Part shown: positions 36,102 to 53,832 of the stretch, piece by piece | Layout: every line of letters starts with the position of its first letter | Position numbering within the stretch: position 1 is the first letter of the stretch | NCBI RefSeq assembly: GCF_004208415.1 | Contig: NZ_CP035758.1 | Coordinates: 10,230,001 to 10,294,000 of the forward strand | Source of the DNA: Ktedonosporobacter rubrisoli | GTDB taxonomy: Bacteria > Chloroflexota > Ktedonobacteria > Ktedonobacterales > Ktedonobacteraceae | Direction of reading: 5' to 3' | Length of the DNA: 64,000 nucleotides | Notes under the pieces: generated by a model | What the model was told of the DNA's origin: nothing | Seen by the model: the letters and a program-made list of their open reading frames with translations, nothing else | The model's database searches: none | Made by a program: the position numbers and the translations under genes

Positions 36102-38708
36102 CTATGATGAAGCGCATGCGCTCTGCTGATCATTCTGCTGATGCATATCTATCGAGATCAAGCCTGGCGTTGCATTACTTTGCGCGCTCTGGGTCAAGAG
36201 ATAGAGACTTGTGCCACGTGGATCGGCAACAGCACTCTTCATAACAGCCAGAAGATTTGCCGAAGTATATTGCCGCACCAGCGTCATACTTAACTGCGTC
36301 CCGCTGCCTGTGCTCACTGTCCCTCCACCTGTACCGCCATTCCCATTCCCTGTAGACGAGGTAGGCGAGGCCGAAGGCGTTACAGTAGCCGTCATAGCAG
36401 CCTCCTGTGCCACCTTAAGATCAATTACGCGGAAATGGTCCTTATCAAGAATAAAGAGATGAGGAGCATTATCACTATCTATCAAACCGGTCGCCAACAT
36501 GCTGGCTCCGGGAACCGACAGGAAAGACTTCGCCTGCACTCCTTGCGTCCCCGGTGTGGGAACAGCCGACGTAGGAGAGAAATCGGCAGCCGTGGCAGAA
36601 AGCGGGACTGGAATAGTACTTTGTATCACGACGCCTATGGGCGTCAGATTCCCGCCGTTAGCAAATGGAAGTGTTTGCACAATCCCATTGCTATAGAGCA
36701 AGAAAAGCCGCCCATCGGGAAAAGCCGCCACACTCACGAGCGTATTCGAAATAGAGAGCGTCGCATTGACAGGTGTAGCTTTTTCCCACTGATTATCGCC
36801 ACTAATCTTGTAGTGAATCATATCAGCCGTATTTGGTGCCGTCTTAGAAGTCAAGATCACATAGACATCTTGGCCCCAGGCCGCCACAAATTGTGGCACC
36901 AGGTCGTTTTGCATATATTTCTGATCAACAGTGGCAGTTCCTGCGTCCTTGAGCGTCCCATCATCGTTGGGCAAGAGCAAATGCAAGGCATACGAATTAT
37001 CTTCTGGCCGAGATGCTAAGGCCACTAAACGCTGCCCATCGCTCACCACTGCCTGGACAAGGACATCTTGTACAGCAGAAATCTTATTGACTAAGCTTCG
37101 CTGATCATTCAAGCGATAGAGCTTTTGATCGGTCCCAACGGCATAGAAGAACTGCTTGTACTTTTCGTTCTGAATAACTGCCAGGATATTGGCCTGTGTC
37201 TCTGTCGTGCCACTATCCAGAGGTGAATTTGTGACATTCACACAAGGGCCTGCTGCCGCTAATGGCACAATTGCTCCTTGCTGATTATAACTTGTAATAG
37301 CCGTCTTCGTTATGGAAACGAACTTGGATTGCAGATCAGAAAACTGTCGGAGCTGTTCGCTGTTTAAAGATATCCCTTGCAGATGCTTTAAATCAAGCTG
37401 CGCCTGGGAAAGTTGTCTGAGAGCAGTGCTGGGGTCATTTGGCAAAGCTTTTCTAGCTTGATCAATGTGTAGGGTAGCATCTTTCTCTATGTTTGTGATA
37501 TTTAGTGGTAATTGTTGATTACTGTGTAGAAGATAGAAGAAGGTGGCTCCAAGTAAACTAACAATAAGGATTACAAGCAGTAGAAAATACTTGAGATGTA
37601 TATTGAATTTTCGCTGACTTAGTAACTGAGCCGATTTGCTAAAGGCAAGCAATAAAGGAATTTGATTAACCCTAGAAATAGGATTATTGACGATTGACGG
37701 AGTAGGCTCCTCTATTGCTGGAGCGCCTATGTTGAAATTTGCCGTAGAAGGTTGTGGAATGTTGGATATAGAGGTTTGGAGTGGCCTGGCTGAAATTGGC
37801 AAAGTTGAAGCTACATTTTGCTCTAGAGATATAGAAGGGATCGATAGTGGAGGGCGCATTTTGTTAAGAGGGAAGGAGGAAGTTAATTCTGGTTGATGGA
37901 ATTGTGAGTTGTAAGCTTGTTCTAAAGCTATAGCAAATGATTGTACATCAGGAAAGCGGGACTGAGGATCTTTAGCAAGCGCGCTTAACACAACCTGTTC
38001 AATGTCAGAAGAAATACTCGGTATCTTAATGTGCAGAGGGGAAGGTGCAGTGAGTACATGCTGTGTAGCTACTTCTATAGCTGTGCCATTAAAGGGACGC
38101 TCTCCACAGAGCCATTCGTAGGCTATAATGCCGAGTGCATACTGATCGCTGGCAATTTGAGGCCTTCCTTGTAGCTGTTCTGGCGCCATATACGCTATTG
38201 TTCCTGCCATTTCCAACAGGCTTTGCGAACGAGCGCTGCGAGCAATCATAGCAATGCCAAAATCACTTACCAGGACTTCATCATTGGGTCCTAACAAGAG
38301 ATTCTCCGGTTTTACATCCCGATGGATTACATGTTCAGAGTGGGCATACTGAAGTGCACTAGCGATTTGTTTTATGTATAAGACAACGGTTTCTAGTGGG
38401 ACTTGCGTTCCCTTCGGATGGCGTTGACGCAGCGTGCCATTGGGCGCGTAGTCCATGACGATAAAAGCTATACGATGATCTACGCCGAAATCTAAAACCT
38501 GTACAATATGAGGATGCTTCAGCCTGATAGTGCGTGCCTCATTGAGAAAGCCAGGAAGCTCACTATCTGTTAACTGCTGTAGTACTTTAATGGCAACAAT
38601 ATTTTTATGATAGATGTGCTCTGCAAGGTAGACCTCTCCGAAACTGCCAAAACCCAGCAGACGAATCAGCCTATAATTGTCTAGCCGTTGTCCTGTACGG
38701 TCAGACAT
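36102..38708 (-). CDS. Transmembrane Ser/Thr protein kinase (PknB-like) with extracytoplasmic sensor
   Basis: 868 aa from the ATG at 38708, chosen for AAGGGGGAAGT upstream. The kinase domain (about 12-270) is complete: GFGSFGEVYLA, VAIKVLQQ, HRDVKPENLLL, SDFGIAMIA, GTIAYMAPEQL. A flexible linker and one membrane helix (about 370-395, YFLLLVILIVSLLGATFFYL) lead to a roughly 470-residue outer domain with repeated strands suggestive of a beta-propeller, interrupted by a Gly/Ser/Thr-rich stretch (SPTSSTGNGNGGTGGGT). No PASTA repeats are seen. It lies just downstream of the three-gene defence-like operon on the same strand but behind a hairpin, so it may be independent of it. Confidence 0.9.
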   Translation of the reverse strand: MSDRTGQRLDNYRLIRLLGFGSFGEVYLAEHIYHKNIVAIKVLQQLTDSELPGFLNEARTIRLKHPHIVQVLDFGVDHRIAFIVMDYAPNGTLRQRHPKGTQVPLETVVLYIKQIASALQYAHSEHVIHRDVKPENLLLGPNDEVLVSDFGIAMIARSARSQSLLEMAGTIAYMAPEQLQGRPQIASDQYALGIIAYEWLCGERPFNGTAIEVATQHVLTAPSPLHIKIPSISSDIEQVVLSALAKDPQSRFPDVQSFAIALEQAYNSQFHQPELTSSFPLNKMRPPLSIPSISLEQNVASTLPISARPLQTSISNIPQPSTANFNIGAPAIEEPTPSIVNNPISRVNQIPLLLAFSKSAQLLSQRKFNIHLKYFLLLVILIVSLLGATFFYLLHSNQQLPLNITNIEKDATLHIDQARKALPNDPSTALRQLSQAQLDLKHLQGISLNSEQLRQFSDLQSKFVSITKTAITSYNQQGAIVPLAAAGPCVNVTNSPLDSGTTETQANILAVIQNEKYKQFFYAVGTDQKLYRLNDQRSLVNKISAVQDVLVQAVVSDGQRLVALASRPEDNSYALHLLLPNDDGTLKDAGTATVDQKYMQNDLVPQFVAAWGQDVYVILTSKTAPNTADMIHYKISGDNQWEKATPVNATLSISNTLVSVAAFPDGRLFLLYSNGIVQTLPFANGGNLTPIGVVIQSTIPVPLSATAADFSPTSAVPTPGTQGVQAKSFLSVPGASMLATGLIDSDNAPHLFILDKDHFRVIDLKVAQEAAMTATVTPSASPTSSTGNGNGGTGGGTVSTGSGTQLSMTLVRQYTSANLLAVMKSAVADPRGTSLYLLTQSAQSNATPGLISIDMHQQNDQQSACASS

Positions 38709-39047
38709 TACTTCCCCCTTATAGTAGGGTAATTGTTTGTCCAAATTGTATGGTAATATATGCATGTTATTGCATTCCGGAATGTATGTCAAGCAAAGAG
38801 AGCGATACAACTGAGATTTGTTATTCTAGGTTGAAACAGGATTACTTAGTTAAGGAAATAAGTTAGAGAAATTAATTGCGAATACATATTAACTTTAATG
38901 AGGGAGAACATCTTCTTTAGAGGGATAAGAACCATAAATACTTCATAAAAGGCCAGTAAACTATATGAGGCTTCTTAATTTGTTTGATTGGGCTAAGCCC
39001 ATAGGCAGACTTCCGTACTGAGAGCCTGCCTATTCTCTGATTGGGCT
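38709..39047. other. AT-rich gap between defence-like operon and kinase
   Basis: About 340 AT-rich bases with no gene. It contains the operon's probable terminator at its right end and the kinase promoter. TGATTGGGCT occurs twice (38985-38994 and 39038-39047), flanking the hairpin. Confidence 0.55.
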
Positions 39048-39048
39048 T
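38995..39048 (-). terminator. Hairpin at the 3' end of the three-gene operon
   Basis: ATAGGCAG (39001-39008) pairs with CTGCCTAT (39026-39033); outer arms AAGCCC (38995-39000) and GGGCTT (39043-39048) can extend it. It adjoins the stop codon of the 1,704-aa gene. No T-run, so terminator function is inferred from position. Confidence 0.45.
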
Positions 39049-42000
39049 TAGCGCAGAGGATGCATTTGTACCCTCGACGCCTGAGGCATATCCGGCGTCT
39101 GGACGTAGGCTGTGCCCACCTGCATCTGTGCGATCTGCCGCCCGAGATCCACACCCAATGGAGCCTGGAGGAGGCCAGCAACCTTGCGCGAGTCGGGGTG
39201 ATTGACTCGGAAAATGACCTTAGTGCCAATATTGCCGATGATGCCCTGATGGAAGTCGGTTAATTCCTGGCTGGCCACGATGACAACTACCCCAAATTTG
39301 CGTCCCTCCTTCATGATCTTGGGAAGGGTAACGTCGCGAGCCAGGCGATGAGCTTCGTCCAGAACGATAGCCAGGCGCAGTTGCTCGGTTGGACCCCAGC
39401 GGAACATGTCTTTATAGACCTTACGTAGGATAAAGGCTCCTGCCGCTAACTGTAAACGTTCAAGTACGCGATGCAAATCCAGGACCAGGCCGTTGCGAAT
39501 ATGGGTCAGGAGATTGACTTCACTCTGTTCTGGACGGAAGAGATTCATTTCAAGCAAGCTACGGCAGCGCGCGAGAATAATGTCTGCGTTCCGATTGCTA
39601 CCCTGGCGCTTAATCTGCTCAAGTACATTCTCCAGGGTAGGATAGGCTAATTGCTGCGAGCCGTTTGCTTTGCCGAAACCCTGTTCCTGATAGGCGCTGA
39701 GAAGAGCCTGGTAGAGCGTGTCTTGCTGGATAGGGCCGAGGCCGGTCACGTGGGCAAAAATCTCGGCGACCTCCAGGCTATTAGCGATGATATCCGCATC
39801 TTCGCCATGAGAAGAGCATTCAAAGGGCGAAAAAGGTAGTCCGCGCGCGACATCTAGAACATGCGGCCTTACCTGTTGGGTGAAGGGCTCAGCGGGATCG
39901 GAGAATTGGCCGTGGAAATCGAGAACGAGCGAAGGAACATGCTGCTTGCTCAACTCGATAAGCAGGCGCGTAATTGTCCAGGATTTTCCCTGGCCGGGAA
40001 TACCGATAATAAAAAGATGTGGACTGCCCTTAACGCTTGGCTGCCAGTGGCATTCCCCACCTTGAAGCGCCTTACCCAGGCCGATGGCAACTTCCTGACC
40101 AACAGCATGCGGCTCTCCATCTTGAACTGCATACTGGAAAGGCTGGCTCAGGTCGCTATCCCGGGCAACCGTCATTGGTTCGGCAACGGCATCCAGGGGC
40201 TCTAATACCGCAGTGCGCCGCCGCATCACCTCGTTTCTTAATAGATCATCGTCGCTCTCGTCAGCAATTCCCATGTCCGTGCCATTTTCTTCATCAAGAG
40301 CCATATCAGTCTCAGGGAGGGTGCTCTCTTGAAATAGAGAGGATGAGGCTATGATGGGGAAGCGCTGAGTATCAAAATCGGCAGCGGTTAGTACGCGAAT
40401 CTTGGCCCCATTGATAGTAGTAGCTGTAGCTCGTTCATCCAGGCTCACAATATAGCCTTCGTACCTGTAGCGAAAATCCAAACCAGCTTTTTCGAGCTCG
40501 CTCAGGCGTTCAAGAAACGTATGCTCTTGTTCAGGATCAAAGAGTCCGTAGCGGCGGGAGCGCTCAAAATAGAAGCGCAGGACATTGGCTAGATGTGAGC
40601 GCTGTAGAGCTCCATCGATGCGTTCTGCATTAAAGAAGTGATCCTCCAAAGCACGACGAGAAGCCTGCATTTGTAATTGCATTTCTTCGCCTAAACGATC
40701 GATGGAAACGCGTCCGCGTCGCCACTTGACCTCAATAAAAGTTACATCGACAATATTGCGTTTCAAAGTAAATAAAGCCAGGTCGCAGCGGCGATCGCCC
40801 GCCTGCGTCGATTGTTTCCCTTCGCGCGCAAAGAGGCGAGGATGCAGGTCAACAGGCACAAGCACACTCTGGCGCAGGCGATTTTTCCCTTGCAGCCAGG
40901 CAGTAACTATTCCCAGGCCAACCGCTCCTGAGGCACTTGTGCGCGACTCAAGGGCTTGCAGGGCCAGGCTGCCAGAAACGAGCTTAAGGTGATGGAGTAG
41001 ATGGCTCACACTGCTCTCTATTGCAGAGATGCCACGTTCTTCCATGGCCTGGCGTAAGAGGCTGCCGATCTCTTCATGCCAGGATGTTGTAATCATCAGG
41101 CGATGCCCCAGCCCTTCAGAAAACTCGGGCGAGTAATCGAGGACATATTTGCGTGCCACCTCGTTAAGACTTTCGATATGCGGCGAATCGTAATAGTCGA
41201 GCGCGAAGAAGCGATCGAGCGTAATAACCCAGTTCGCACTTTGATGTAAGCGTTCGAGTAGGCGCCGGCGAGGCTCGTCGAGATGGACTTGAAGGGCGGG
41301 CTGGCTGCCAGGCTCCCCACCTAGCAGGCGCGCGCCTGCCTCAAGTAGCGTGGTGTGCAGCTGGATCAGGATATCGCTATACTGAGTTTTAACCGGGTGG
41401 GTCTCTGCTGGCTTCAGGCGCTCAGTAAGGATCTGATAGCGCCAGATAAGACCGGAAGCATCTCTTTTCAATTGGGGCACAAAGCGACAAAGGAGACCAT
41501 AGAGGGCAAAGCTTCTCGCCTCTATTTCTCCTTCTGTTGCCCCGTAGGCTGTAAGCGTTGGCCGCGTAATATCTGAGACGACGGCGACATGCGCGTCGGC
41601 CAGATCATCATGTTCGAGTTGTTCAATCGTACGCAAGGTAGCAGAGAGCCCGGGCAAAAAGTAGCTCCCACCACTATTGCCGAAGCGCTCAAGCGTCTGG
41701 CGCACGCGATTGAGGGCCTGTACCGAGCTTTTGCGTTCGTCTTCTACATATGAGGTCACCTGGAAAGCCGAGATGCGACTTTCTTCGCTTCCCTCTTCCT
41801 CCTCATTCTTGGGCAAGGCGAGCTGTTTCAGGGCCTCGGCAAAGAAATCGCCGCGGTCAGGATTGATGAGGGTGGTAACCAGCGTCTGGATGTAGGGATG
41901 GAGCTCAATGAACTTGGCCAGATGATTCGCTAATTGCTCAGGCTGGATGGTTCCGATCGTTATTTGGTCCTGATCTGCGCCCAGAATGGTAGCGAGCTCG

Positions 42001-44162
42001 CTATAGCGACGATGGGGATCGGGTACGCCAACAGGAAGCAAGACGCCATGATAAAAGCGCAGATTTTGGAAGAAGACAAATTGCTCAGGCGAATCGCTGT
42101 GGAAGGCGAAGGCAGGCGTATTGATTGGCGAAAGCATGCGCAATGCCTCTAAATCCAGCGCTCCTTTGCGCGTGGCTGGCTTGGTACGCTCCAAGAGTTG
42201 TTCTTCCCAGTTGCTAAGCAATTGTGTATAACCCACCAACCAGGCGATGCGCAATGGATGGGTAGGAAGTATGACCAGGGCCTCCTCAATCTTTTGCGCG
42301 CCATCGCGTACGCGGATGAGTAACGTATCGAGCGACATGGCTTCGCGCATCTCAGCCCACCTTTCTGCCTGTCTTTCTCCATCTCTGCTCACCTTCTGCA
42401 GCAAGGCCTGCAGTAGAGCCTGATAGCTTTGTACATAGCGTACCGCCGCGCTCGTTATTTCAGGTTTCCACTGCACAACTTCGATAAAGTGCCGTGGGTC
42501 GGATTGCCGTATGCTCCTGAATAGGGCTTCACGGGCGTTCCAGAATGATCTCCAGCTATCGTCATCGCCATAAAGCATATAGCGGTCCTTACAGGCATCG
42601 GCAGAGACGCGTTTGACCTCATCAACCAGGAGCTGGAACATTCCTCCACCACGCGAGCCGCGTAGGGTCCTGTCTTCGAGCTCTTTCAGCACTGAGCTCA
42701 GGCCCAGCGTAATAGCGCGTTTATTATCCAGGCGCAGGCTGAAATACTCAAGCTCACCGCTGCTCCATTGAGCGCCGGATTCTTCCAGGGATGTGGCGCG
42801 TGTTTGTAAGGCCTGCTCCAGCCGGCCCAGGGCAATAGTGCTGACCTCGCTGCGCGTCTCACGTGGAAGTTCTTTCCCTTTGTCTTCCTCATCGAATTCG
42901 CTTTCGGGCATCAGGAAAAACTCATCGCTATCAGCATAGATGATTTTCTCTGAGCCTCCCTGGTCTTCTTGATAACTGACTGGCTGTCCAGAAACCTCAA
43001 TGGGGGTGACGCGCACAAATACGCCTAACTGGCGCTCTAGCTCAAAATCAAGCTTGATGGTCAGATTGCGGCGGCTGGCAGGAATCTCGCGCGAGGGAAG
43101 ATCGATGCCACTATCCTGATCCGTGTCTCCTTCCAGGACGCTCAAGGGCAGGAGCTCAACGCGCCAGTATTTGAGATTGCGTGGGTTGGGCGGCTCTACC
43201 TTCCAGCGTACAACCACGCTTGATTTAGGACCACAAGGGATGAGTAGATCTGTCCCAGGCCCATTGGGCTGCAGGAGATGTGTGTAGCGCTCGACCTTGT
43301 TTGCGCTGTCCAGGAAATGCTGTATTTGTACCTCTTTAATATCGCTGTGGTCCTCTTCAGGAAAGCGCCAGCGCTCAAAGGTTAGCCCGGCCTGAATAAG
43401 CGCCTGCGACCAGCTACGTGGATCGTTAAGATTGCGTCCGCGGAAGAAGGCTATTAGCTGTTGACCAGTCTGCTCATCTACAAGTAAAGCTTGAATGCGT
43501 TCAGGGAGCGAGGCTTGTAGGCGGCCTGGATACACCAGCGCTCTGACACAACGTTTGTTATTGTCGAGCGCTTCCATAAACGCAGCTTCATTCTCGCCGA
43601 GAACAGATTGGCCATCGGCAATGAGGCCCACGCGCCATAACTCAAGGCCTGCCTGCTCCAATTGGTGCTGCTCATCACGCTCCAAAAGCGCGCTGACAAA
43701 GCTGATCTGCTGCTCCTTACTGACCTTAAGGATACCGCGTAACTGGTTGAAGACGCCCTGCACGATTCGCTGAGCTTGATTTGAGAGCCGAGCGCGCAAC
43801 TGCTTGAGCAGGCTATCATACAGCGTGCGCCCATCGATGAGGGCAAACGAGTTTCCCAGAGAACTGGCTGTTGCATCAACGATATCCATTGGGACGAAAA
43901 GGCAGATGCTCTCTTCTTTGCGGTTGCGTAGCTCTATGGCATGATCGGCGGCAATGCTAAGCTCATCGTCTGCGTTTGTCTGGCCACCTTGTAGGAGAAA
44001 AGCTTTGATACCATTGCCTGCCTGGACTTGATGAAATTGCTGGCAGATTGCGCGGGCTTCCTCGCGAGGCAAAAAGTCAACGCGGGCACAGTGTCCCACA
44101 GAAGTATTCTTGAAGTGTTTGCTGATCTCTTTGGTCAGGATTTCGGTTCTTTGTGCATTCAT
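39048..44162 (-). CDS. MAD8/DptH-like protein: PD-(D/E)XK-like motif plus HerA-type ATPase
   Basis: 1,704 aa. The C-terminal third is a HerA/DUF87-type motor: P-loop IIGIPGQGKSWTITRLL near residue 1390, DFHGQFSDP, Walker B LRLAIVLDEAHRLARD near 1600, and SQELTDFHQGIIGN. Before it, near 1125-1150, RRCDLALFTL and VTFIEVKWRRGRV have the D...ExK spacing of a PD-(D/E)XK nuclease. The first 1,100 residues are large, helical and unrecognised. Length, layout and order match MAD8 of the methylation-associated defence system and, more loosely, DndH/DptH. It probably moves on or cuts invading DNA. GGAGG precedes the ATG, 2 bases after the 570-aa gene. Confidence 0.72.
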   Translation of the reverse strand: MNAQRTEILTKEISKHFKNTSVGHCARVDFLPREEARAICQQFHQVQAGNGIKAFLLQGGQTNADDELSIAADHAIELRNRKEESICLFVPMDIVDATASSLGNSFALIDGRTLYDSLLKQLRARLSNQAQRIVQGVFNQLRGILKVSKEQQISFVSALLERDEQHQLEQAGLELWRVGLIADGQSVLGENEAAFMEALDNNKRCVRALVYPGRLQASLPERIQALLVDEQTGQQLIAFFRGRNLNDPRSWSQALIQAGLTFERWRFPEEDHSDIKEVQIQHFLDSANKVERYTHLLQPNGPGTDLLIPCGPKSSVVVRWKVEPPNPRNLKYWRVELLPLSVLEGDTDQDSGIDLPSREIPASRRNLTIKLDFELERQLGVFVRVTPIEVSGQPVSYQEDQGGSEKIIYADSDEFFLMPESEFDEEDKGKELPRETRSEVSTIALGRLEQALQTRATSLEESGAQWSSGELEYFSLRLDNKRAITLGLSSVLKELEDRTLRGSRGGGMFQLLVDEVKRVSADACKDRYMLYGDDDSWRSFWNAREALFRSIRQSDPRHFIEVVQWKPEITSAAVRYVQSYQALLQALLQKVSRDGERQAERWAEMREAMSLDTLLIRVRDGAQKIEEALVILPTHPLRIAWLVGYTQLLSNWEEQLLERTKPATRKGALDLEALRMLSPINTPAFAFHSDSPEQFVFFQNLRFYHGVLLPVGVPDPHRRYSELATILGADQDQITIGTIQPEQLANHLAKFIELHPYIQTLVTTLINPDRGDFFAEALKQLALPKNEEEEGSEESRISAFQVTSYVEDERKSSVQALNRVRQTLERFGNSGGSYFLPGLSATLRTIEQLEHDDLADAHVAVVSDITRPTLTAYGATEGEIEARSFALYGLLCRFVPQLKRDASGLIWRYQILTERLKPAETHPVKTQYSDILIQLHTTLLEAGARLLGGEPGSQPALQVHLDEPRRRLLERLHQSANWVITLDRFFALDYYDSPHIESLNEVARKYVLDYSPEFSEGLGHRLMITTSWHEEIGSLLRQAMEERGISAIESSVSHLLHHLKLVSGSLALQALESRTSASGAVGLGIVTAWLQGKNRLRQSVLVPVDLHPRLFAREGKQSTQAGDRRCDLALFTLKRNIVDVTFIEVKWRRGRVSIDRLGEEMQLQMQASRRALEDHFFNAERIDGALQRSHLANVLRFYFERSRRYGLFDPEQEHTFLERLSELEKAGLDFRYRYEGYIVSLDERATATTINGAKIRVLTAADFDTQRFPIIASSSLFQESTLPETDMALDEENGTDMGIADESDDDLLRNEVMRRRTAVLEPLDAVAEPMTVARDSDLSQPFQYAVQDGEPHAVGQEVAIGLGKALQGGECHWQPSVKGSPHLFIIGIPGQGKSWTITRLLIELSKQHVPSLVLDFHGQFSDPAEPFTQQVRPHVLDVARGLPFSPFECSSHGEDADIIANSLEVAEIFAHVTGLGPIQQDTLYQALLSAYQEQGFGKANGSQQLAYPTLENVLEQIKRQGSNRNADIILARCRSLLEMNLFRPEQSEVNLLTHIRNGLVLDLHRVLERLQLAAGAFILRKVYKDMFRWGPTEQLRLAIVLDEAHRLARDVTLPKIMKEGRKFGVVVIVASQELTDFHQGIIGNIGTKVIFRVNHPDSRKVAGLLQAPLGVDLGRQIAQMQVGTAYVQTPDMPQASRVQMHPLR

Positions 44163-44164
44163 AA

Positions 44165-45877
44165 TTATTGAGCCTCCACCAGTTCCAGGTACTCACCTGC
44201 ATAAGGAGGGCGCAGACGCTGAGCCGTGAAATCGTCGGATAGGTCGCGGAAGATATCCATCTGCCGCAGGCGGCGCAGCATCGCGCGCAAATTTTCGCGG
44301 GCCGCCGCTACATATTCTGCGCCCTCAAACTGGGCTGGTGGGCGGTCAACCAGAATACCAAAGCGTTGCTCCAGGAACGTGAGGAAATCTTGTAGACGGA
44401 TTGTGTAAATGCCCTTGTCATTCTTTTGTTGACCTTCTCCGGGTCCGATGCGCGCTGCTGCTAGCTGAACCAGCACCGAAAGCAGCTCATTTGTTGGCGC
44501 GTATTTCCACGACGGCCGATAGCCGCGTCGCCCATCGATCAGGCTAAAGGGATGATCATTTCCGCCTACATTCCAAATCCATTTTAAATAATTGCTGATA
44601 CCCTCCCCTTTCTGAGCTTCAGCAAGAAGTGCAACTACGCGTTCCACATCTGTTTCTCCAGTATCTGCGATAGCATCAACCCAGCTGATTATACCGTCTT
44701 GCTTCTCGCTATTATCTTCGGATTCGCTGGATTGATTAGCTTGGCGTATTAGCTCTTCATCCCTTATCGCTGCTGCAGTAATATAGGGGCTTAATTTGGG
44801 ATGCTCTTGAAGAAGCAAGAGACCCTTGAGATAGGACGGGCCGCACTCGCATCCTTCTACGGCCTCCTCTATCAGACTCCTCCATCTCTGACCTCTCAAC
44901 TCTTTGATGTACCTGTCAAGTTGTCGTAGAAGAAGATTTGACGTGAAAAATTGTCTATATGTGTCTATATCACGTTTCACGTTATTTTTCGATATGTAAT
45001 CGCAAGACTCCACAAGTTTGCCTGTAAAATCTAAAAATATTTGGGGATTTGAAGATTGAAAGTTGTCTTGCATCGCTTTAGGTAGGTATTCTGGTTGCGC
45101 TACAAGTTCGTTAATTGCCCGAGCCGTTTTTAATGTGTAGATGAACAGCTCAAACCTTATTAAACCTTGCAAATATTGCATAAAAGCCTGGGTTGGCATG
45201 AGATCGTGATACGCTGTGATGTAGCATATCATATCTTCTGCAAAAGCCTGTATCAGGGAAGGGCATGAACCCTTTCCCAGATCTTTATCACGATTGAACT
45301 GCGATGCTGAACTTTGGAAGCCGTCCAGGAACATAATAGAGAGGAGGGTTAAAGTGTCTAATGGAGTTTGACTATCATACTTACCTCCTACATTCGGCCT
45401 GGGCGTAATAATGATGCCTTTACCAAAAATTTGCTTCAGTAACTGTTTGAGATCTTCATTTTTTGAGATGACACTTTTTAGCGCCTGATAGACAAAAATA
45501 TCGACCTTACGTAGCCCTTGATTTTCTGCAGTTTTTAATGCAAGCAATGAATAGGATTTAATAGCTGCAACTTTTTCGTTGCTACGGTTATGGCCAGTTC
45601 TCGAAGTAGTTATAAGCGTAGTACGTATCAGCCGATCAAGGAGCTTTTTCCCTTCTTCTCCCTCAAAACCTTCTAGCTCGGGATGCGAGAATAATAGGCC
45701 GAGATATTTGTCAACTGTATCATGTTCTTTGGACCTTCGTACTGTTCCATGCCCATCAGCTATAACTATGAAAAATAGTGCTGGCAATAATCGCTCAATA
45801 TCAAAGTTGTTTAGCTCAATACTGAGCACTTTGGAAAATTTGGTGCCGCGTAGCTCTTTGGGAAGCGATATCTTCAT
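44165..45877 (-). CDS. MAD7/DptG-like unknown protein of the defence-like operon
   Basis: 570 aa, soluble, mostly helical, without a catalytic motif that I recognise. The opening is MKISLPKELRGTKFSKVLSI. The last 90 residues (IRLQDFLTFLEQRFGILVDRPP, AARENLRAMLRRLRQMDIFRDLSDDF) look like a winged helix ending in a conserved tail. Its place between a kinase/ATPase and a HerA-type ATPase matches MAD7, or DptG in DNA-phosphorothioation restriction. The first two thirds are clearly more AT-rich than the flanking genes, suggesting separate ancestry or strong drift. It is probably a bridging subunit between the two motor proteins (inference). Confidence 0.65.
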   Translation of the reverse strand: MKISLPKELRGTKFSKVLSIELNNFDIERLLPALFFIVIADGHGTVRRSKEHDTVDKYLGLLFSHPELEGFEGEEGKKLLDRLIRTTLITTSRTGHNRSNEKVAAIKSYSLLALKTAENQGLRKVDIFVYQALKSVISKNEDLKQLLKQIFGKGIIITPRPNVGGKYDSQTPLDTLTLLSIMFLDGFQSSASQFNRDKDLGKGSCPSLIQAFAEDMICYITAYHDLMPTQAFMQYLQGLIRFELFIYTLKTARAINELVAQPEYLPKAMQDNFQSSNPQIFLDFTGKLVESCDYISKNNVKRDIDTYRQFFTSNLLLRQLDRYIKELRGQRWRSLIEEAVEGCECGPSYLKGLLLLQEHPKLSPYITAAAIRDEELIRQANQSSESEDNSEKQDGIISWVDAIADTGETDVERVVALLAEAQKGEGISNYLKWIWNVGGNDHPFSLIDGRRGYRPSWKYAPTNELLSVLVQLAAARIGPGEGQQKNDKGIYTIRLQDFLTFLEQRFGILVDRPPAQFEGAEYVAAARENLRAMLRRLRQMDIFRDLSDDFTAQRLRPPYAGEYLELVEAQ

Positions 45878-45894
45878 ATCTTCACTTTGCTTTT

Positions 45895-48800
45895 CTAGCG
45901 CAAGGGAACGTTACTGCGCACAATTTTGCCATTCTGCTGAGTAATATAATGAACTTTTTGCTTGTTCTCAATCAGGACCAGATCACGAGTTTCCTGCAGG
46001 AGCAGCGTACTCTTGAATATTTTGAGGTCCTCCAGGAGCGGTACATATTCCTGAGCGCCTGGTTGGAGTCCTGTTGCCAACCTCATCAGGAGTTCAAAGA
46101 GATCCAGCGTGATCTCCATGCGTGGCGTTCTGCTCTCATGCTCAAGGATGAGGATCTCTGGAATTGCTTCGATCACCTCGCTGTGTTGTGGATGGTCAAC
46201 GCTAAGCCGAAAATCGGCAAGGGGAAATTGCTTGAGCACTATGAGTTGATGTTCTTCCGAGGCCTCAACGGTTATGCTCAGTTGTCCTTGTGTGGCAATA
46301 CCCGCGACGCCCGAACTGGAGCGCAAGAGCCCGAAAGCCAGTTGCGCTTTGAGCGCTTCCAGGTCTGCCTGACCTTTGAGCGCAGCAAAAAATGTCCCTG
46401 CGTGCTTATAGGGAAGAAGCTGTTCCCAGCGAAGGTGGGGTAATCCAAGGCTGTGTGCAATCTCATTTGGTGCTTCGAAGTAGAGGCGCCGTTTGAAGGC
46501 CGCGATCCACTCTTGTTCATTAGAGAAGCGCCGGCGCGCCAGATCTGTCTTGTCACGGAAAAGTTGCGCTCGCCTGGCCTTGTGTTCTTCTTCCTGGTGA
46601 AAATGGAGAAAACGGTCAAGACGAGGATTGGAGAATTGGCCAGGATCAAGGGTAAGGAAGTCGTTAAATATCGCATCGAGCCGCTTGCTTTCCTGGGGCG
46701 CAAAGACAAGTTGCCAGTAGTCGTAGCGGGTCAGATTTGAAAGATTGCTTCCACCCTGATATATTTGATGGACATCGCTGCAGCCAAGGTCGCCGGTCGC
46801 GATGTAGGCGATTGCCGAGCGCAAATCGCGCATAGTAATGTGCTGCTGCCGTCGTAGGTGGGTGAGCAGAAAGAGCTGCTCCAAGCGATGGGTAGTGTTA
46901 GCCTTATTAAGCTTCTGGATGTTTTTCCGAATGGGACAGATAGCTTTCGCGCTGCATCCCTGGCAGATTTGCCAATTGTCGATATCAAGTAGCGACAGCA
47001 GGATCTCCTGGAAGATGGAAAGGCCGTCGCTCTCAGGTAATGCGACAAAGGCACGCTTCTTGAGGTCAATAAGCCAGGCCGGACGATCTTTTAGCTCCGG
47101 GCCCTTTACACTGAGCTGACGCGATAACCAGCCGAAACGTTGGCGGTAGCGCGAGAAGAAGTCGAGTAGGCGGCCATCATTAATAGCTACCAGAACGGTC
47201 AAAGGGATCGTGGCTTGCTCTTCTCCTTCTAAACCTGCCAGCTTTTGGCTGAGTTGTTCGTCTGCACTCTGCCCCCGATTGGCTTCAGAGGCGTCGTAAC
47301 AGCTACGATAGACATGGCCCTGGTAGTGCCATTCCCAGCCGCTTTTATCGGATTTTACTTCTTTGCCACCTGACTGGCTTATGTGTTGTCGAACACGTTC
47401 AAGAAAGGCTGTCTTGCCATCGCCTGGATTGCCAGAGAGAAAGATAACTCTGGGTTTGACTTTGAAGAGCAGCGGTAAGAGCTCGCTATCTAGTCCGGTA
47501 TCGACATAGGTGTCGCGTACGAAGTCGTTGTCTAAGCCGCGATTATTTTCGTTGCCGAGCAGACTATTGCGGTAGAGGCTGCGTAACTTATTGACCCAGG
47601 GATTAACGAGCAGGGAAGAGGCCTGTGTTTGTTCGGGCGGCACAGTCACAATCTCAGGGGCTAACAGAATAGTTTGCAGGTGCTCGCGGAGCTCTTTCGT
47701 GCTAGTGAAGCGCTCCTCAGGGTTATTGGCAAGGGCTTTGAGCAGCGTTTCGGCCAGCCTGAGCCTTATAGGATTGGTGACGTCGGTGGGAATGCCCAGG
47801 CTGCGCTCATAGCCGTGGCTTGTTTCCTTAAACGGGAGCTGTCCGGTAAGTGTTTTGAATAGAACAACCGCTGTCGCATAGCGGTCACTACTAGCTGGCG
47901 GCCTGGAGGAGGTAAAGGCTTCCGGGGGAAGATAGTGCAGGGTACCAGCCAGGGATTTTTCTACATTGGTAGGGATAGCGAAGCCGAAATCAATCAAGAC
48001 CGGGCGCTGATCATCCTCGTGCAGAATAATGTTGGAAGGCTTAATATCGCGATGGAGAATATTGTGTTTCTCAAGCTCTTCGACGGCGCTCATTAAGCCC
48101 AGGGCAAAGTTCCACCACTTATCGATACTCCAGGGCAGCTCTTGCTCAACTTCCTGCAAAGTTGGCCCGGGAATACGGCTCATTTTGATGTGCACATCAT
48201 TAGTCAAGGGAGAAATTTCATATATGCGTGGCAGGTTGGGATGCTGTAATTTGCAGAGGGCTTTAAACTCGTTCTTGGCCTGCTCAGCTGCGGCCGACGA
48301 GGGATTAAGAAATTGCTTGAGTGCGAACCATTCATCACTGATCTCATCGAATGCCAGGTAGGTGCGCGCCGTGCTGCCCTGGCCAAGGATGCTGTGCACA
48401 ATATAGCGATTGTCGAGGCGTTTCTTTTCCTGAATGCTGGCCTCGATCTTGAGGCGTTTGCTAAGATCTCTGAGCGTCTGGGCTACCTCCGAAGCTCGTG
48501 GCCGTTCCTCGTATTGCTCGGTACCACAAATCGCTTGCAAACACTCAGTCAATTCCTGAATAATCTCGGGAGGAAGCGTTGACCAGTGCGCTTGGAGATC
48601 TTGGATCTGGGCGGGCTTATCGGGCTCTGTTCGTAGCTCTTCCATGGAAACCTGTGACCAGCGTTCCAGGAAGATAAGTCCCAGGCTAAAGACATCCGAG
48701 GTTGGCTGGGCGAACTCGTAGCCATAGGCAATTTCTGGCGCTGCGTAGGGATCATCGATGGTCAATGCATCGAGTGAGGAAGCAATGGAATGGCCATGGG

Positions 48801-49839
48801 TATTGATTCTGGCGGCATAAAAGTTGGTGAAGGCTACACGAGTTTTGTTGTGTTCGGTGACAAGGTGGAGTGCTTCGGGTGAGATGGCGCGATGGATGAT
48901 ATCATGCTGATGAATAGTCGCCAGGCCCTTAAAGGCCTCAGTAGCTATTTGCAGGTCTTTAATCAACTCATCGCGCGTGCGCGGCATCACAAAGGCGCTA
49001 ATGGCCTTCCCTGGTAACGGTTTGATGGGTAGGATCAAGAAATCTTCCGACCAGAGAAAATGATCGTTCATATCGGGGACCAGACCAGTGGAGTGAAGCG
49101 CGTTCAAGGCTTTGTACTCACGTAGGTAAAATTGACGCAGTTCTTCGCGATGTAAAGAATTCTGGCCCAGGTCATAAACTAGCAGATGACGCGGCTCCTG
49201 CGTCTCTATAAAGGTTGCGCGCCACAAGCGAACTCCCGGGCGCAGTTGAATGGCTTCCTCGATCTGGTAAGACTCATTTACTTGCTGAGGAATGTCTGGC
49301 CGATTGGATAAGTCGTACAGATTCTTCTGAATCAGGTGGCGGTTTTGTCTGACAAGCGCGCTGCCGCCCTGCTGATCCAACTTTTGCAAGCTCTCGCAAA
49401 GCTGGGGAAGGAGAAAGATGTTTTCTCTGGCCAGGCGATCCTTGATAGGTGGCATCTGCGTCAGCGCAGAGAAGACCACTCCCCCACGCACGTAGTGCTC
49501 TTCTACCTTGCTCAGATCAATGATATGCGAGCGCAGATGTCCGGCCATGATCTTCGCCACAATATCTACTTTACGTAAAGGGCTGCGTTCAGCCGAACCA
49601 TCATGACGCACCCATTGCATTTCATCTCCCCGGATGCGGCCGCGCCAGGATTTTTCGTCGAGTAGAAAGATCCAATGATTTCCTATTACAATGAAGTCGA
49701 TCTCGAATGTACGACCGTTATTAGTAGCCAGAGTTTTATTGCAAATAACAACCCACTGGTTGGGAAGTTTTTCCAACTCTTGAGCTACCTGCTTCTCTCC
49801 AGATGTAGCGAAATCACCCGCTGAAAAAATTTTAGCCAT
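45895..49839 (-). CDS. MAD6-like NERD-pseudokinase-kinase-P-loop fusion protein
   Basis: 1,314 aa from the ATG at 49839 (AAGGAG five bases upstream; a GTG two codons earlier is less likely). Parts: a NERD nuclease-related domain (about 10-150, TFEIDFIVIGNHWIFLLDEKSW); a kinase-like domain (about 190-460) with HRD changed to HRA and DFG to TNF, so a pseudokinase; a complete Ser/Thr kinase (about 470-740; LGQGSTARTYLAF, FALKQF, HRDIKPSNIIL, IDFGFA, GTLHYLPPEAF); and a P-loop ATPase (LSGNPGDGKTAFLERV near 803) with a CxxC...C cluster (ICQGCSAKAICPIRKN near 960), like DptF. The first gene of a three-gene operon. The architecture matches MAD6 and recalls PglW of BREX type 2. Confidence 0.75.
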   Translation of the reverse strand: MAKIFSAGDFATSGEKQVAQELEKLPNQWVVICNKTLATNNGRTFEIDFIVIGNHWIFLLDEKSWRGRIRGDEMQWVRHDGSAERSPLRKVDIVAKIMAGHLRSHIIDLSKVEEHYVRGGVVFSALTQMPPIKDRLARENIFLLPQLCESLQKLDQQGGSALVRQNRHLIQKNLYDLSNRPDIPQQVNESYQIEEAIQLRPGVRLWRATFIETQEPRHLLVYDLGQNSLHREELRQFYLREYKALNALHSTGLVPDMNDHFLWSEDFLILPIKPLPGKAISAFVMPRTRDELIKDLQIATEAFKGLATIHQHDIIHRAISPEALHLVTEHNKTRVAFTNFYAARINTHGHSIASSLDALTIDDPYAAPEIAYGYEFAQPTSDVFSLGLIFLERWSQVSMEELRTEPDKPAQIQDLQAHWSTLPPEIIQELTECLQAICGTEQYEERPRASEVAQTLRDLSKRLKIEASIQEKKRLDNRYIVHSILGQGSTARTYLAFDEISDEWFALKQFLNPSSAAAEQAKNEFKALCKLQHPNLPRIYEISPLTNDVHIKMSRIPGPTLQEVEQELPWSIDKWWNFALGLMSAVEELEKHNILHRDIKPSNIILHEDDQRPVLIDFGFAIPTNVEKSLAGTLHYLPPEAFTSSRPPASSDRYATAVVLFKTLTGQLPFKETSHGYERSLGIPTDVTNPIRLRLAETLLKALANNPEERFTSTKELREHLQTILLAPEIVTVPPEQTQASSLLVNPWVNKLRSLYRNSLLGNENNRGLDNDFVRDTYVDTGLDSELLPLLFKVKPRVIFLSGNPGDGKTAFLERVRQHISQSGGKEVKSDKSGWEWHYQGHVYRSCYDASEANRGQSADEQLSQKLAGLEGEEQATIPLTVLVAINDGRLLDFFSRYRQRFGWLSRQLSVKGPELKDRPAWLIDLKKRAFVALPESDGLSIFQEILLSLLDIDNWQICQGCSAKAICPIRKNIQKLNKANTTHRLEQLFLLTHLRRQQHITMRDLRSAIAYIATGDLGCSDVHQIYQGGSNLSNLTRYDYWQLVFAPQESKRLDAIFNDFLTLDPGQFSNPRLDRFLHFHQEEEHKARRAQLFRDKTDLARRRFSNEQEWIAAFKRRLYFEAPNEIAHSLGLPHLRWEQLLPYKHAGTFFAALKGQADLEALKAQLAFGLLRSSSGVAGIATQGQLSITVEASEEHQLIVLKQFPLADFRLSVDHPQHSEVIEAIPEILILEHESRTPRMEITLDLFELLMRLATGLQPGAQEYVPLLEDLKIFKSTLLLQETRDLVLIENKQKVHYITQQNGKIVRSNVPLR

Positions 49840-50731
49840 GAACACTCCTTACCAAATCAAATAACATGGCCTATAGTGATGTTTGTTGTGGCCTGGCAAG
49901 CGGATTGTACGAGAATTTGCTTTCGCTTGCTGAGACCTGGCAACCCTGGAAAGATGACCAAAGAGTTCACTGCCGGAGTAGAATGTTAAGGGATGGGTGT
50001 ATATTGCCTGTCCTTTAGAAGTTCCGTATATGCTTGTCTAAACACTACCACTCTTTGATCGTCCCAGATGTATTGCATTAAATTTTTGCGCCTAGCAAAA
50101 TAAGATCAGTATTAAGCGCATGATTGCTGCTATATTTGTTTGGAAAATAAGTCTTTGGAATTATTCCTTTCAAATACTATTGACACTGCTGCATTATTAT
50201 AACGTAGACAGAGACGAAGTAACAAGTACTATCGGCAATATAGTTGGAATATGTGGAATGGGCATCGCTGGTAACTTTGCCTAGAAAGGCTATAGAACTG
50301 TAGGTAAGAATACCATATGCAATAGAATTGCTGGAATCCTGCCGTCATCCCGCTTTATACTCGAATTGTCCATATTTCAGCGATATGATATGTTTGCATG
50401 ATAAGTAGGTAAAGCTTAGTAAAGATACCTGTGAAGCTGCAGGGAGTCGATATAATAGAGAGATTGTCTGGAATAAAAAGCTACGTTCAGAGAATGTGCC
50501 TTTATAGAATACAGAGCAAGCCTTTGCTGCCTGTACAAGATGTATCGATGGATTAAAATATATCAAGCGCATGGTTAATCCGAGCATGATTTGTGTATAA
50601 TCTCTCACAAGAAAAAAGTTTAGCGCTAGATGATAGTAGCTCTTTAACTTGCTTAATGAGAAGATTGCTTGCCGCTAAGGCAGCATGTTGTAAAACATGC
50701 TTTCAATTTTTGAAAAGTGAGGTTTTCCCTT
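49840..50731. other. AT-rich region upstream of the defence-like operon and hydrolase
   Basis: About 890 bases, markedly AT-rich, no supported gene. It contains the promoters of the minus-strand operon and of the plus-strand hydrolase, with the hairpins at 50667-50700 in the hydrolase leader. Confidence 0.6.
50667..50711 (+). promoter_or_regulatory. Attenuator-like leader before the alpha/beta hydrolase
   Basis: GCATGTT-GTAA-AACATGC (50683-50700) followed by TTTCAATTTTT has the form of an intrinsic terminator, yet lies only 31 bases before the hydrolase ATG. A second hairpin, GCTTGCC/GGCAGC (50667-50684), shares two bases with it, so the two could compete. Confidence 0.4.
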
Positions 50732-51752: not shown

Positions 51753-53432
51753 CTAGCCCTCTTCGCGATCGGGTTGAGGATCTTGCCAGGATTCAGGCAT
51801 CTGAATTTTTGCATCAAGGCTTGCATATTCTTTGAGCAAATAGAGTAGGTTGCTGCCGCTGAGTAGTTCTAATGGCTTGCCTTCAGCGAATTCAAAAGAG
51901 GCCTTGCCGTATCCACTAGTTGTCACAAGAATGCCTTTTGAAGCTCCCTCATTTTGTACGGTTCCATAGAGATCACGTACGGCACTTACGCCAACTGTAT
52001 GCTTATAGCGTTTAGCCTGGATGACAACCTTTCCGCCGAAAATAGGACGAGGATCGAATGCCACGCAATCCACTCCTCCATCGCGTGATGCTTGTGTTTG
52101 TCGTGCTTCCAGGCCCATCTTCTGAAACAAATTGGTGATCAGCGATTCAAATTCTGAAGGAGTAAGCTCCATTAAGTTGGGGCGCTGATCCAAGCCTGAG
52201 AGCACATCAATCTCCTCAATAAAGCGGGGATCAACCATATTAAAATCCATAACTGGTCTGACTGGAATGAGCTCAGCCGGACTTTTAGAAATAGATGCAT
52301 TGAGGGTAGCAAGGCATACCTGAGGGTCCACCTGACTCAAATTCAAGCCGGTAAAGACATCCCGGCTGGTACGAACAGTGATAAGACATGTGCGGATTGC
52401 GTGTCCAGTTCCCTTGTTTACGCTACTGGTATAGCCATTAAACGCCACTGTATCCAGCTGTTTCAGACGATCTGCTTTGAATAGCTCGTAAAGAGTGCGA
52501 AGCGTAATCTGAGCAATGGCAGAAACGTATAAGGCTTTTCGCTGTGCAAGCGGACGAGCTGTTGTTGTCACACTATCTTTTGATTTTACATATTTGTAGG
52601 AGGCTATTTCAGGAATGAGCTCAAACGGGGGGAGATCATATTCAACTACCAGCTGCCTTGATTCTGGAACATAAGCAAGCTTTGGGTGCTGCGGAAAGTT
52701 GTCGGGGTAGGAGCTTGAAGCAAGAACCATGCTGAAATAATCGACGATGCTCTCTGGAGAACCAGAGAGCAAGCTTTTCTGAAACTCATCTATCTCGGCG
52801 TGTTGTTGGGCAACTCTTCGTCGTTCCTCGATAATTTGTTGTTCATATTTTGCTTTCATCTGTACGAGGGCTTGCTGTCGCGCATTTTCACGTGCCATAT
52901 AGGCTGCCATTTGCGCCCTATACATATCCTGCGCCTGCACAACTTCCTGCGCATATTTTTCTTTTGCCCCTGGTAAAAATTTCTGAAGACTATTCTGCTC
53001 GGGCGGCCTATAGGGTTGTGGAGGAGCTACCGCGATAGCAAGAGGACCTGGATTAAAGGGTGGAAGGTTAGGAGCTTGTTTAAGCGTCTGTAAGTCTATA
53101 TAAGGATCGGTTGACAAGGCGCTCTTTAGAAGGTGTTCAAATAAGCTGACCTGCTGATCTAGTTGAGCATTCTGCCACTGGACTTGCGCTATTCTTGATT
53201 GGGCGTAAAGCTTTTCCTGTTCTTTCTGATTGGCAATTCGTGCTCGCTCATAGTCTTTTTGTGCTTTCTCAGCATCTTTTTTTGACTTCTCTTGCTTTTT
53301 TTCGAGGGAACGCAATTGAGTTATTTGTCTTCTTTGAACTTGTTCCAGGGAACGCAGTTGGGCTGCTTGTCTTCTTTGGGCTTCTCGTTGTGCTTGTACT
53401 AATGCCTGCAAGAGACCACTTCTTCGCGTCAT
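51753..53432 (-). CDS. Coiled-coil Mrr-type restriction endonuclease
   Basis: 559 aa from the ATG at 53432 (GAGAAGGAG upstream). Residues 1-100 are a Gln/Lys-rich coiled coil with an imperfect internal repeat (QAAQLRSLEQVQRRQ, QITQLRSLEKKQ); a Pro-rich linker and a second coiled coil (170-220) follow. The C-terminal 110 residues are the Mrr/restriction-endonuclease-like domain: FESLITNLFQKMGLEARQTQASRDGGVDCVAFD then KVVIQAKRYKHTVGV, giving the D...QxK active site. Mrr enzymes cleave modified (methylated) DNA as type IV restriction. Here the coiled-coil head probably oligomerises or recognises a partner. Confidence 0.85.
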   Translation of the reverse strand: MTRRSGLLQALVQAQREAQRRQAAQLRSLEQVQRRQITQLRSLEKKQEKSKKDAEKAQKDYERARIANQKEQEKLYAQSRIAQVQWQNAQLDQQVSLFEHLLKSALSTDPYIDLQTLKQAPNLPPFNPGPLAIAVAPPQPYRPPEQNSLQKFLPGAKEKYAQEVVQAQDMYRAQMAAYMARENARQQALVQMKAKYEQQIIEERRRVAQQHAEIDEFQKSLLSGSPESIVDYFSMVLASSSYPDNFPQHPKLAYVPESRQLVVEYDLPPFELIPEIASYKYVKSKDSVTTTARPLAQRKALYVSAIAQITLRTLYELFKADRLKQLDTVAFNGYTSSVNKGTGHAIRTCLITVRTSRDVFTGLNLSQVDPQVCLATLNASISKSPAELIPVRPVMDFNMVDPRFIEEIDVLSGLDQRPNLMELTPSEFESLITNLFQKMGLEARQTQASRDGGVDCVAFDPRPIFGGKVVIQAKRYKHTVGVSAVRDLYGTVQNEGASKGILVTTSGYGKASFEFAEGKPLELLSGSNLLYLLKEYASLDAKIQMPESWQDPQPDREEG

Positions 53433-53832
53433 TGCATCTTTCTCCTTCTCCACTACACAATGCTTGTTATTGTGTGATCCTCACTAATAGATTGGTAGAG
53501 CTTAATAGTAGCAGAGAATGAAGAGCGCTGCAAGATAGAAAGATTTCTAGTATTATTTGCTGTTTGGCTTGTATCTTCTCTTTACAATCTAGGATATGGG
53601 ATAGAACATGCACCTATCCTTATCTGTTTTCTTGCAGGCCATTCTTTTATATGTTCCTTACCCATGAATGGAACAGAGTTCAGTTTCTCCCTTCCCTTTT
53701 GATCGCTTCCTTAATACCATTTCCCGGCTCAATCGGGAACCCATCCTCATGACAGCGGGAAACAGCATTGGGTATGCTTGGGCATGGATGGAGAGGGAGG
53801 CGGCATTTCACAACGAAAGGAAACTGAAAAGA
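53433..53832. other. Gap between Mrr-like gene and cytochrome P450
   Basis: About 400 bases holding the divergent promoters of the Mrr-type gene and the P450. The P450 frame is open back to an ATG at 53668, but the 55 residues so added do not look like P450. Confidence 0.5.

What the first reader, a model, noticed from the sequence alone, without database searches (positions are those of the whole stretch)
39048..49839. Orphan mad6-mad7-mad8-like (DndFGH-like) defence operon without a modification module
Seen: three tightly spaced minus-strand genes encode a NERD-pseudokinase-kinase-P-loop protein (1,314 aa), a 570-aa unknown and a 1,704-aa HerA-type ATPase with a PD-(D/E)XK-like motif. Known: this order and these sizes match MAD6-MAD7-MAD8 of the methylation-associated defence system as I recall it, and the last two plus the ATPase part recall DndF/G/H. 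Inference: the usual methyltransferase, specificity subunit and other MADS genes are absent from at least 9 kb on each side, as are dndBCDE. So this is either a split locus or a self-standing kinase-regulated restriction system, distinct from the described versions.
Basis: partly seen in the sequence, partly recalled or inferred. Interest (0 to 1): 0.78.

Follow-up and report, generated by a model that had tools for sequence, protein, structure and literature searches.

The report
MADS-like phage-defence trio without methyltransferase
Three adjacent genes in a soil bacterium (Ktedonobacteria) encode the DNA-cutting and sensing half of a known phage-defence machine without the DNA-marking half; close relatives in other bacteria mostly look the same, so this is a recurring stand-alone form of a known kind of system rather than a broken fragment or a new kind.

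Summary
Three minus-strand genes, 17 and 2 bp apart, encode F (NERD nuclease, pseudokinase, kinase, P-loop core; 1314 aa), G (570 aa) and H (nuclease plus HerA ATPase; 1704 aa). F and G pass NCBI's curated cut-offs for MAD6 and MAD7; H is MAD8/DndH-like but below the MAD8 cut-off. No methyltransferase, specificity subunit or dnd gene lies within 39 kb downstream or 33 kb upstream, and the genome has no MAD2 or MAD5 over cut-off and no DndC. A split locus is not supported: the trio forms a clade separate from true MADS (100% support), and 13 of 16 relatives with upstream context have no adjacent modifier (two adjoin an Eco57I-type methyltransferase, one a BREX operon). In Thermogemmatispora the trio is under purifying selection (dN/dS about 0.12) and diverged alleles were exchanged between species at one site. 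"Distinct from described versions" is mostly not supported: Rakesh, Aravind and Krishnan (2024) described stand-alone DndFGH and this DndF architecture. Best reading: a stand-alone, probably kinase-gated, DndFGH/MAD6-8-type restriction complex. A methyltransferase acting in trans is not excluded; the genome encodes several. Anti-phage activity is not shown.

The parts
45895..49839 (-). F gene (MAD6/DndF-like), 1314 aa: NERD nuclease, pseudokinase, Ser/Thr kinase, P-loop core and C-terminal domain
   Evidence: NF047741 559 bits over cut-off 460; Pfam NERD and Pkinase; SspF 123 bits
49468..49803 (-). NERD (PD-(D/E)XK) domain, residues 13-124, motif EIDF...DEKSW intact
   Evidence: PF08378 4e-18; motif alignment
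48445..49272 (-). pseudokinase, about residues 190-465 (HRA in place of HRD, no DFG); limits approximate
   Evidence: motif alignment across relatives
47653..48426 (-). active-looking Ser/Thr kinase, residues 472-729 (ALK lysine, HRD, DFG)
   Evidence: PF00069; motif alignment
46066..47505 (-). DndF/SspF-like P-loop core, residues 779-1258: Walker A GNPGDGKT, ND motif AINDGR, CxxC...C zinc-type insert
   Evidence: SspF model 123 bits; hhalign to SspF 99.2%; motifs
44165..45877 (-). G gene (MAD7/DndG-like), 570 aa
   Evidence: NF047733 454 bits over cut-off 410; hhalign to MADS MAD7 100%, to SspG 89.6%
39048..44162 (-). H gene (MAD8/DndH-like), 1704 aa
   Evidence: DndH model 128 bits; solved DptH 7es4, E 4e-9; MAD8 model below cut-off
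40803..42845 (-). H middle region, residues 440-1120; possibly a degenerate methyltransferase-type fold, no [NDS]PP[YFW] motif
   Evidence: AF2 pLDDT 79, weak methyltransferase-fold matches including M.BseCI prob 0.94, E 0.11; motif absent
40719..40796 (-). H PD-(D/E)XK motif CDLALF...FIEVKW, residues 1123-1148
   Evidence: motif alignment
39180..40025 (-). H C-terminal HerA/FtsK ATPase, residues 1380-1661 (Walker A, Walker B, sensor Q, Arg)
   Evidence: PF01935 and TrwB_AAD_bind; motif alignment
50196..50225 (-). possible promoter TTGTTA-18-TATAAT in the 0.8-kb region upstream of F
   Evidence: consensus scan only; overall counts only slightly above shuffles

Best explanation
The trio is a complete restriction module of the DndFGH/SspFGH/MAD6-8 kind that works without a co-encoded modification module. 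Shown by sequence: homology of all three proteins to the MADS core, homology of F and G to SspF/SspG and of the H ATPase to DndH, and intact motifs for two nucleases, one kinase, one nucleotide-binding P-loop and one DNA-pumping ATPase. Inferred: G and H bind DNA, with H translocating along it and cutting or nicking it; F senses infection through its P-loop core and C-terminal domain; the pseudokinase-kinase pair acts as a phosphorylation switch that holds the complex off or releases it; NERD is a second nuclease. Self-DNA is spared because activity is gated by an infection signal, not by a mark written by a dedicated partner gene. Confidence that it is a DndFGH/MAD6-8-type defence complex is about 0.85; that it needs no specific methyltransferase in trans, about 0.5.
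For: Curated profile matches; profile-profile matches of F/G/H to MADS (all 100%) and of F/G to SspF/SspG (99.2%, 89.6%); DptH structure match; intact catalytic motifs. No linked modifier within 39/33 kb; no MAD2 or MAD5 over cut-off and no DndC in the genome. 13 of 16 window-clade loci with at least 2.5 kb upstream lack an adjacent modifier, against 3 of 17 in the MADS clade plus L177 (Fisher p=4e-4, not corrected for kinship). Present in all six Thermogemmatispora genomes; dN/dS 0.11-0.20; allelic exchange of the cassette between species at one site, AU p=5e-6. Stand-alone DndFGH proposed in PMC10853773.
Against: No activity is shown. The genome encodes other methyltransferases: type I RM, a methyltransferase-specificity fusion, BREX PglX, IIG-like genes and PF01555 members. 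Three relatives do sit beside a methyltransferase or BREX. Similarity of H to SspH is weak (best hhalign 50%). H is interrupted in T. tikiterensis and its nuclease motif is lost in two relatives, so it is dispensable or altered in places.
Confidence: 0.6

Rival explanations
1. The trio restricts DNA that lacks a mark written by a methyltransferase encoded elsewhere in the genome (modification in trans). The module is unlinked, not modification-free.
For: Several candidate methyltransferases in the genome. Eco57I-type methyltransferases adjoin the trio in L089 and L092, and a homologue of the L092 enzyme (31% identity) is present in the five Thermogemmatispora genomes compared. Its allele grouping resembles that of the trio in that genus. 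BREX adjoins the trio in Ktedonobacter sp. SOSP1-85 and a separate BREX exists in this genome.
Against: No single methyltransferase family was shown to follow the trio. Other methyltransferase loci in Thermogemmatispora also show discordant grouping, so co-grouping is not specific. The neighbours differ between loci. The trio has been swapped as a cassette without a linked modifier.
Confidence: 0.35
2. A remnant of a full MADS operon that lost mad1-5 recently.
For: F and G pass the MAD6/MAD7 cut-offs, and the order F-G-H is that of MAD6-7-8 (for a MAD2-5-6-7-8 locus).
Against: The clade as a whole mostly lacks MAD2/MAD5 and is separated from the MADS clade by a long, fully supported branch. 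Purifying selection in relatives, intact motifs, and no mad2/mad5 fragments near the locus.
Confidence: 0.06
3. An accessory module of a BREX system in the same genome, as the Ktedonobacter sp. SOSP1-85 arrangement suggests.
For: brxC-pglX-pglZ-brxL lie directly upstream on the same strand in SOSP1-85. This genome carries BREX about 320 kb away.
Against: Thermogemmatispora, G022, G012, G006 and K. racemifer show no PF08665 PglZ. That profile also missed the SOSP1-85 PglZ next to the trio, so the absence is weak evidence.
Confidence: 0.06

Closest known systems
DndFGH as a stand-alone counter-invader system (Rakesh, Aravind and Krishnan 2024, PMC10853773), including DndF with NERD and inactive plus active kinase
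   Same: Three-gene operon F-G-H; F carries NERD, pseudokinase, kinase, P-loop core with ND motif and zinc insert; H ends in nuclease plus HerA/FtsK with sensor Q; often without a modification module
   Different: This lineage scores as MAD6/MAD7 rather than as Dnd/Ssp in curated profiles. The inactive methyltransferase, TRD and beta-sandwich domains of H were not demonstrated here. The paper's main text names no Chloroflexi; its supplements could not be read.
MADS, methylation-associated defence system (Maestri et al. 2024, Cell Host Microbe, doi 10.1016/j.chom.2024.07.005; known here through citing papers and NCBIfam/PADLOC profiles, the paper itself was not readable)
   Same: F and G pass MAD6/MAD7 cut-offs; same order MAD6-7-8; profile-profile probability 100% for all three
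   Different: No MAD2 methyltransferase or MAD5 specificity subunit; H below the MAD8 cut-off; different HerA motif set; separate clade
SspBCD-SspFGH (PMC8092258), present in other Ktedonobacteria (G024, G027, G033)
   Same: Homologous F core and G; large H with HerA ATPase
   Different: No NERD or kinase on SspF; linked to PT-modification genes; only distant similarity
PglW of BREX type 2
   Same: NERD, pseudokinase, kinase N-terminal half (177 bits; parallel drawn in PMC12839542)
   Different: Different C-terminal half; no pgl partners; far below the PglW cut-off (168 against 990 bits)

Membership tests
MADS | MAD6 kinase protein over curated cut-off | tested here: met
   559.5 against 460 bits
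MADS | MAD7 over curated cut-off | tested here: met
   454 against 410 bits
MADS | MAD8 over curated cut-off | tested here: not met
   66.5 against 175 bits; note that a true MAD2-5-6-7-8 locus (L110) also misses it at 148 bits
MADS | MAD2 methyltransferase and MAD5 specificity subunit, the methylation part that names the system | tested here: not met
   none near the locus; none over cut-off in the genome
MADS | MAD1, MAD3, MAD4 | not tested
   their profile accessions were not found here; no such gene was recognised near the locus
DndFGH (sense of PMC10853773) | Operon of three genes F-G-H | tested here: met
DndFGH (sense of PMC10853773) | DndF core: P-loop with ND motif and optional zinc insert in the lid; optional NERD and kinase fusions | tested here: met
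   motifs; SspF profile
DndFGH (sense of PMC10853773) | DndG triple winged-HTH protein | tested here: inconclusive
   hhalign to SspG 89.6%; confident model but no match in the PDB
DndFGH (sense of PMC10853773) | DndH nuclease followed by HerA/FtsK ATPase with sensor Q | tested here: met
   motifs; DndH profiles; 7es4
DndFGH (sense of PMC10853773) | DndH N-terminal SWI2/SNF2-type domain, beta-sandwiches, TRDs and inactive methyltransferase | tested here: inconclusive
   middle region modelled (pLDDT 79) with only weak methyltransferase-fold matches; N-terminus not modelled
Dnd/Ssp phosphorothioation system | PT-modification genes (DndC or SspD type) in the genome | tested here: not met
   no DndC match in G000; SspBCD not sought genome-wide, none near the locus
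BREX type 2 (Pgl) | PglW over cut-off with pgl genes linked | tested here: not met
   168 against 990 bits; no PglX- or PglZ-type gene near the locus

The most novel reading that the evidence does not exclude
A lineage of the MADS restriction core that gives immunity with no DNA modification at all, using its built-in kinase/pseudokinase switch instead of a self-mark, and that can be coupled secondarily to unrelated modifiers (MAD2/MAD5, Eco57I-type enzymes, BREX) as interchangeable partners.
Probability: 0.35. Interest if true: 0.65.

Novelty: new member of a known kind. Interest (0 to 1): 0.43.

Why it matters
How a DndFGH-type nuclease complex can be safe without a self-mark is an open question, raised on computational grounds in 2024. 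This locus and its relatives give a clean test set: natural trios with no linked modifier, close relatives with different kinds of modifier, and two alleles swapped between thermophilic species. They also suggest that the MADS restriction core is a movable part that is not tied to methylation.

Tried and rejected
Split or degenerate MADS: rejected by the tree, neighbourhoods and dN/dS. PT-linked Dnd/Ssp: no DndC in the genome. Hidden active methyltransferase inside H: no [NDS]PP[YFW] motif in any window-clade H. Specificity divergence concentrated in one part of H between alleles: divergence is spread out, with lowest identity at residues about 1250-1350, between nuclease and ATPase. A trans methyltransferase following the trio: suggestive for one IIG-like family in Thermogemmatispora, but other methyltransferase loci show similar discordance, so not claimed. 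Plasmid and phage collections: one weak plasmid match, no phage match. Foldseek with the G model gave nothing. Kinase matches alone are uninformative: the genome has 157 MAD6-profile matches, of which one is over cut-off. Rfam: nothing in the window.
Full report
WHAT IS THERE. The window lies in a single-contig 11.34-Mb genome at 10,230,001-10,294,000, class Ktedonobacteria by its relatives. Three minus-strand ORFs, F (45895-49839), G (44165-45877) and H (39048-44162), are separated by 17 and 2 bp. F passes the NCBI curated cut-off for MAD6 (559 against 460 bits) and G that for MAD7 (454 against 410). H matches the MAD8 N-terminal profile only below cut-off (66 against 175). PADLOC gives DndH 128 bits and mad8 71 bits for H, mad7 60 bits for G, and SspF 123 bits for the C-terminal half of F. 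Pfam finds NERD, two kinase stretches and the HerA/FtsK-type ATPase. Among PDB sequences the best match to H is DptH (7es4, E=4e-9).

ANATOMY. Aligned with relatives, F keeps the NERD catalytic motif, a first kinase domain without HRD Asp and DFG (pseudokinase), a second kinase domain with Lys, HRD and DFG, a Walker A (GNPGDGKT), an ND motif (AINDGR) and a CxxC...C insert. The last three are features that PMC10853773 gives for DndF. H keeps a PD-(D/E)XK motif (CDLALF...FIEVKW) and the HerA Walker A, Walker B, sensor Q and Arg residues, as that paper gives for DndH. The HerA motifs of this clade (GIPGQGKS, LDEAHRLA) differ from those of the MADS clade (GVQGFGKSYT, FDEAHKYI). AlphaFold models: G pLDDT 81, with no PDB match; H residues 440-1200 pLDDT 79, with only weak methyltransferase-fold matches, the most relevant being the DNA adenine methyltransferase M.BseCI (probability 0.94, E 0.11). 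No window-clade H has an [NDS]PP[YFW] motif, so any methyltransferase fold there is likely inactive. That part is inconclusive.

NO LINKED MODIFIER. HMMs built here for MAD2-type, HsdM, PglX, IIG and type II methyltransferases, MAD5/HsdS-type subunits, BrxL, PglZ and SspBCD find nothing in the 64-kb window or the next 19 kb upstream, i.e. 39 kb downstream and 33 kb upstream of the trio. Genome-wide, MAD2 and MAD5 have no match over cut-off, DndC none, and MAD6 and MAD7 one copy each over cut-off. The genome is not free of methyltransferases. It has a type I RM at 0.86 Mb, a methyltransferase-specificity fusion at 8.48 Mb and a type II methyltransferase at 6.02 Mb, a BREX locus at about 10.60 Mb, IIG-like genes at 11.18 Mb and PF01555 members.

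RELATIVES. MAD7-profile matches occur in 15 of 47 Ktedonobacteria genomes, 11 over cut-off, and in 34 of 400 Chloroflexota, 18 over cut-off; the weak matches checked in G024, G027 and G033 are SspFGH loci. A scan of 84,980 species also gave Frankia, Armatimonadetes, myxobacteria and others. A tree of F+G+H separates the window clade (Ktedonobacteria, Chloroploca, Herpetosiphon, Frankia, an Armatimonadetes MAG) from the MADS clade by a long branch with 100% support. MADS-clade loci mostly carry MAD2 and MAD5 directly upstream. Of 16 window-clade loci with at least 2.5 kb upstream of F, 13 have no adjacent modifier (window, K. racemifer, G022, five Thermogemmatispora, two Chloroploca, Herpetosiphon, two Frankia). 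Two adjoin an Eco57I-type methyltransferase (L089, 35 bp upstream; L092, divergent). One, Ktedonobacter sp. SOSP1-85, sits directly after brxC-pglX-pglZ-brxL. A Fisher test against the other loci gives p=4e-4. This is descriptive only: the loci are related, and five of the nine Ktedonobacterial ones come from one genus.

MAINTENANCE AND EXCHANGE. In Thermogemmatispora the trio occupies one conserved site in the genomes compared and has dN/dS of 0.11-0.20. Nucleotide identity shows a mosaic: T. aurantia (G037) and T. tikiterensis (G042) are 90-98% identical in the flanks but 74-84% across the trio, whereas T. aurantia and T. carboxidivorans (G038) are mostly 76-90% in the flanks and 91-96% across the trio. 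Tree tests on F+G and on the flanking genes reject each other's topology (AU p=5e-6 and 4e-10). A cassette of the trio plus a 299-aa upstream gene has therefore been exchanged between species by homologous recombination, as is common for defence loci, without a linked methyltransferase. In T. tikiterensis H is interrupted at about codon 272 by an insert with a 408-aa ORF that looks like a TnpB-type transposon protein (identified by eye, not searched). The nuclease motif of H is lost in G012 and L090.

HOW IT MOST LIKELY WORKS. By homology to DndFGH, whose complex has nickase and translocase activities (abstract of PMC11662687), G and H would bind and scan DNA and H would cut it. F would sense infection and, through the pseudokinase-kinase pair, control the complex, with NERD as a second nuclease. 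The published model for stand-alone DndFGH proposes sensing of several signals in place of a self-mark. The sequence shows the parts; the order of events and the trigger are inference. The main rival is modification in trans by one of the other methyltransferases, which the data do not exclude: in Thermogemmatispora a IIG-like enzyme related to the L092 neighbour groups by species in a way similar to the trio, but other methyltransferase loci are discordant too.

NOVELTY. PMC10853773 found DndFGH components in 1798 taxa, with all eight dnd genes together in only 316, argued that DndFGH is stand-alone, and described NERD with inactive and active kinases fused to DndF. PMC12839542 compares this with PglW. 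What is added here is the sister relation of a lineage without MAD2/MAD5 to MADS, its varied neighbours, and the cassette exchange. I therefore class it as a new member of a known kind. It is not filed as MADS, because two defining MADS genes were tested and are absent. It works like the MADS/DndFGH restriction core as far as sequence can tell.

Noticed in passing
window 51753-53453 (-): A 566-aa Mrr-type (type IV, methyl-directed) restriction enzyme, PADLOC mREase_IV 334 bits, lies 1.9 kb upstream of F on the same strand; not conserved beside the trio in relatives.
   Followed up: partly
window 36102-38810 (-): A 902-aa Ser/Thr kinase follows H on the same strand; it looks like one of the many ordinary kinases of this genome.
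   Followed up: partly
L107:354-5093 (Ktedonobacter robiniae, G034): A MADS-clade trio whose MAD2/MAD5 place is taken by a 1287-aa and a 284-aa gene with no match in Pfam or PADLOC (the 1287-aa protein also none in NCBIfam); could be an unknown modifier or sensor.
   Followed up: partly
L024:5060-5959 (-), Thermogemmatispora carboxidivorans: A 299-aa gene just upstream of F, with a CxxxC motif (ACGQYCYA) and a weak radical-SAM match, shares the recombination history of the trio.
   Followed up: partly
L086 (G012) and L090, H gene: The PD-(D/E)XK motif of H is lost (FIAVAW, LVSVAV) while the ATPase motifs remain, so the nuclease of H may not always be the effector.
   Followed up: no
G000:C1:10623424-10625394, about 12 kb from the BREX genes: A second MAD6-profile match (157 bits) covering nearly the whole profile, with two in-frame stops, near the BREX locus of this genome.
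   Followed up: no
L064-L069 (G024, G027, G033): SspBCD-SspFGH loci near a BrxL gene in other Ktedonobacteria; K. racemifer has both this and the kinase-type trio.
   Followed up: partly
L074:703-18078 (K. racemifer), about 11 kb downstream of its trio: A DISARM-like cluster with DrmMI (1803 bits) close to the trio.
   Followed up: no
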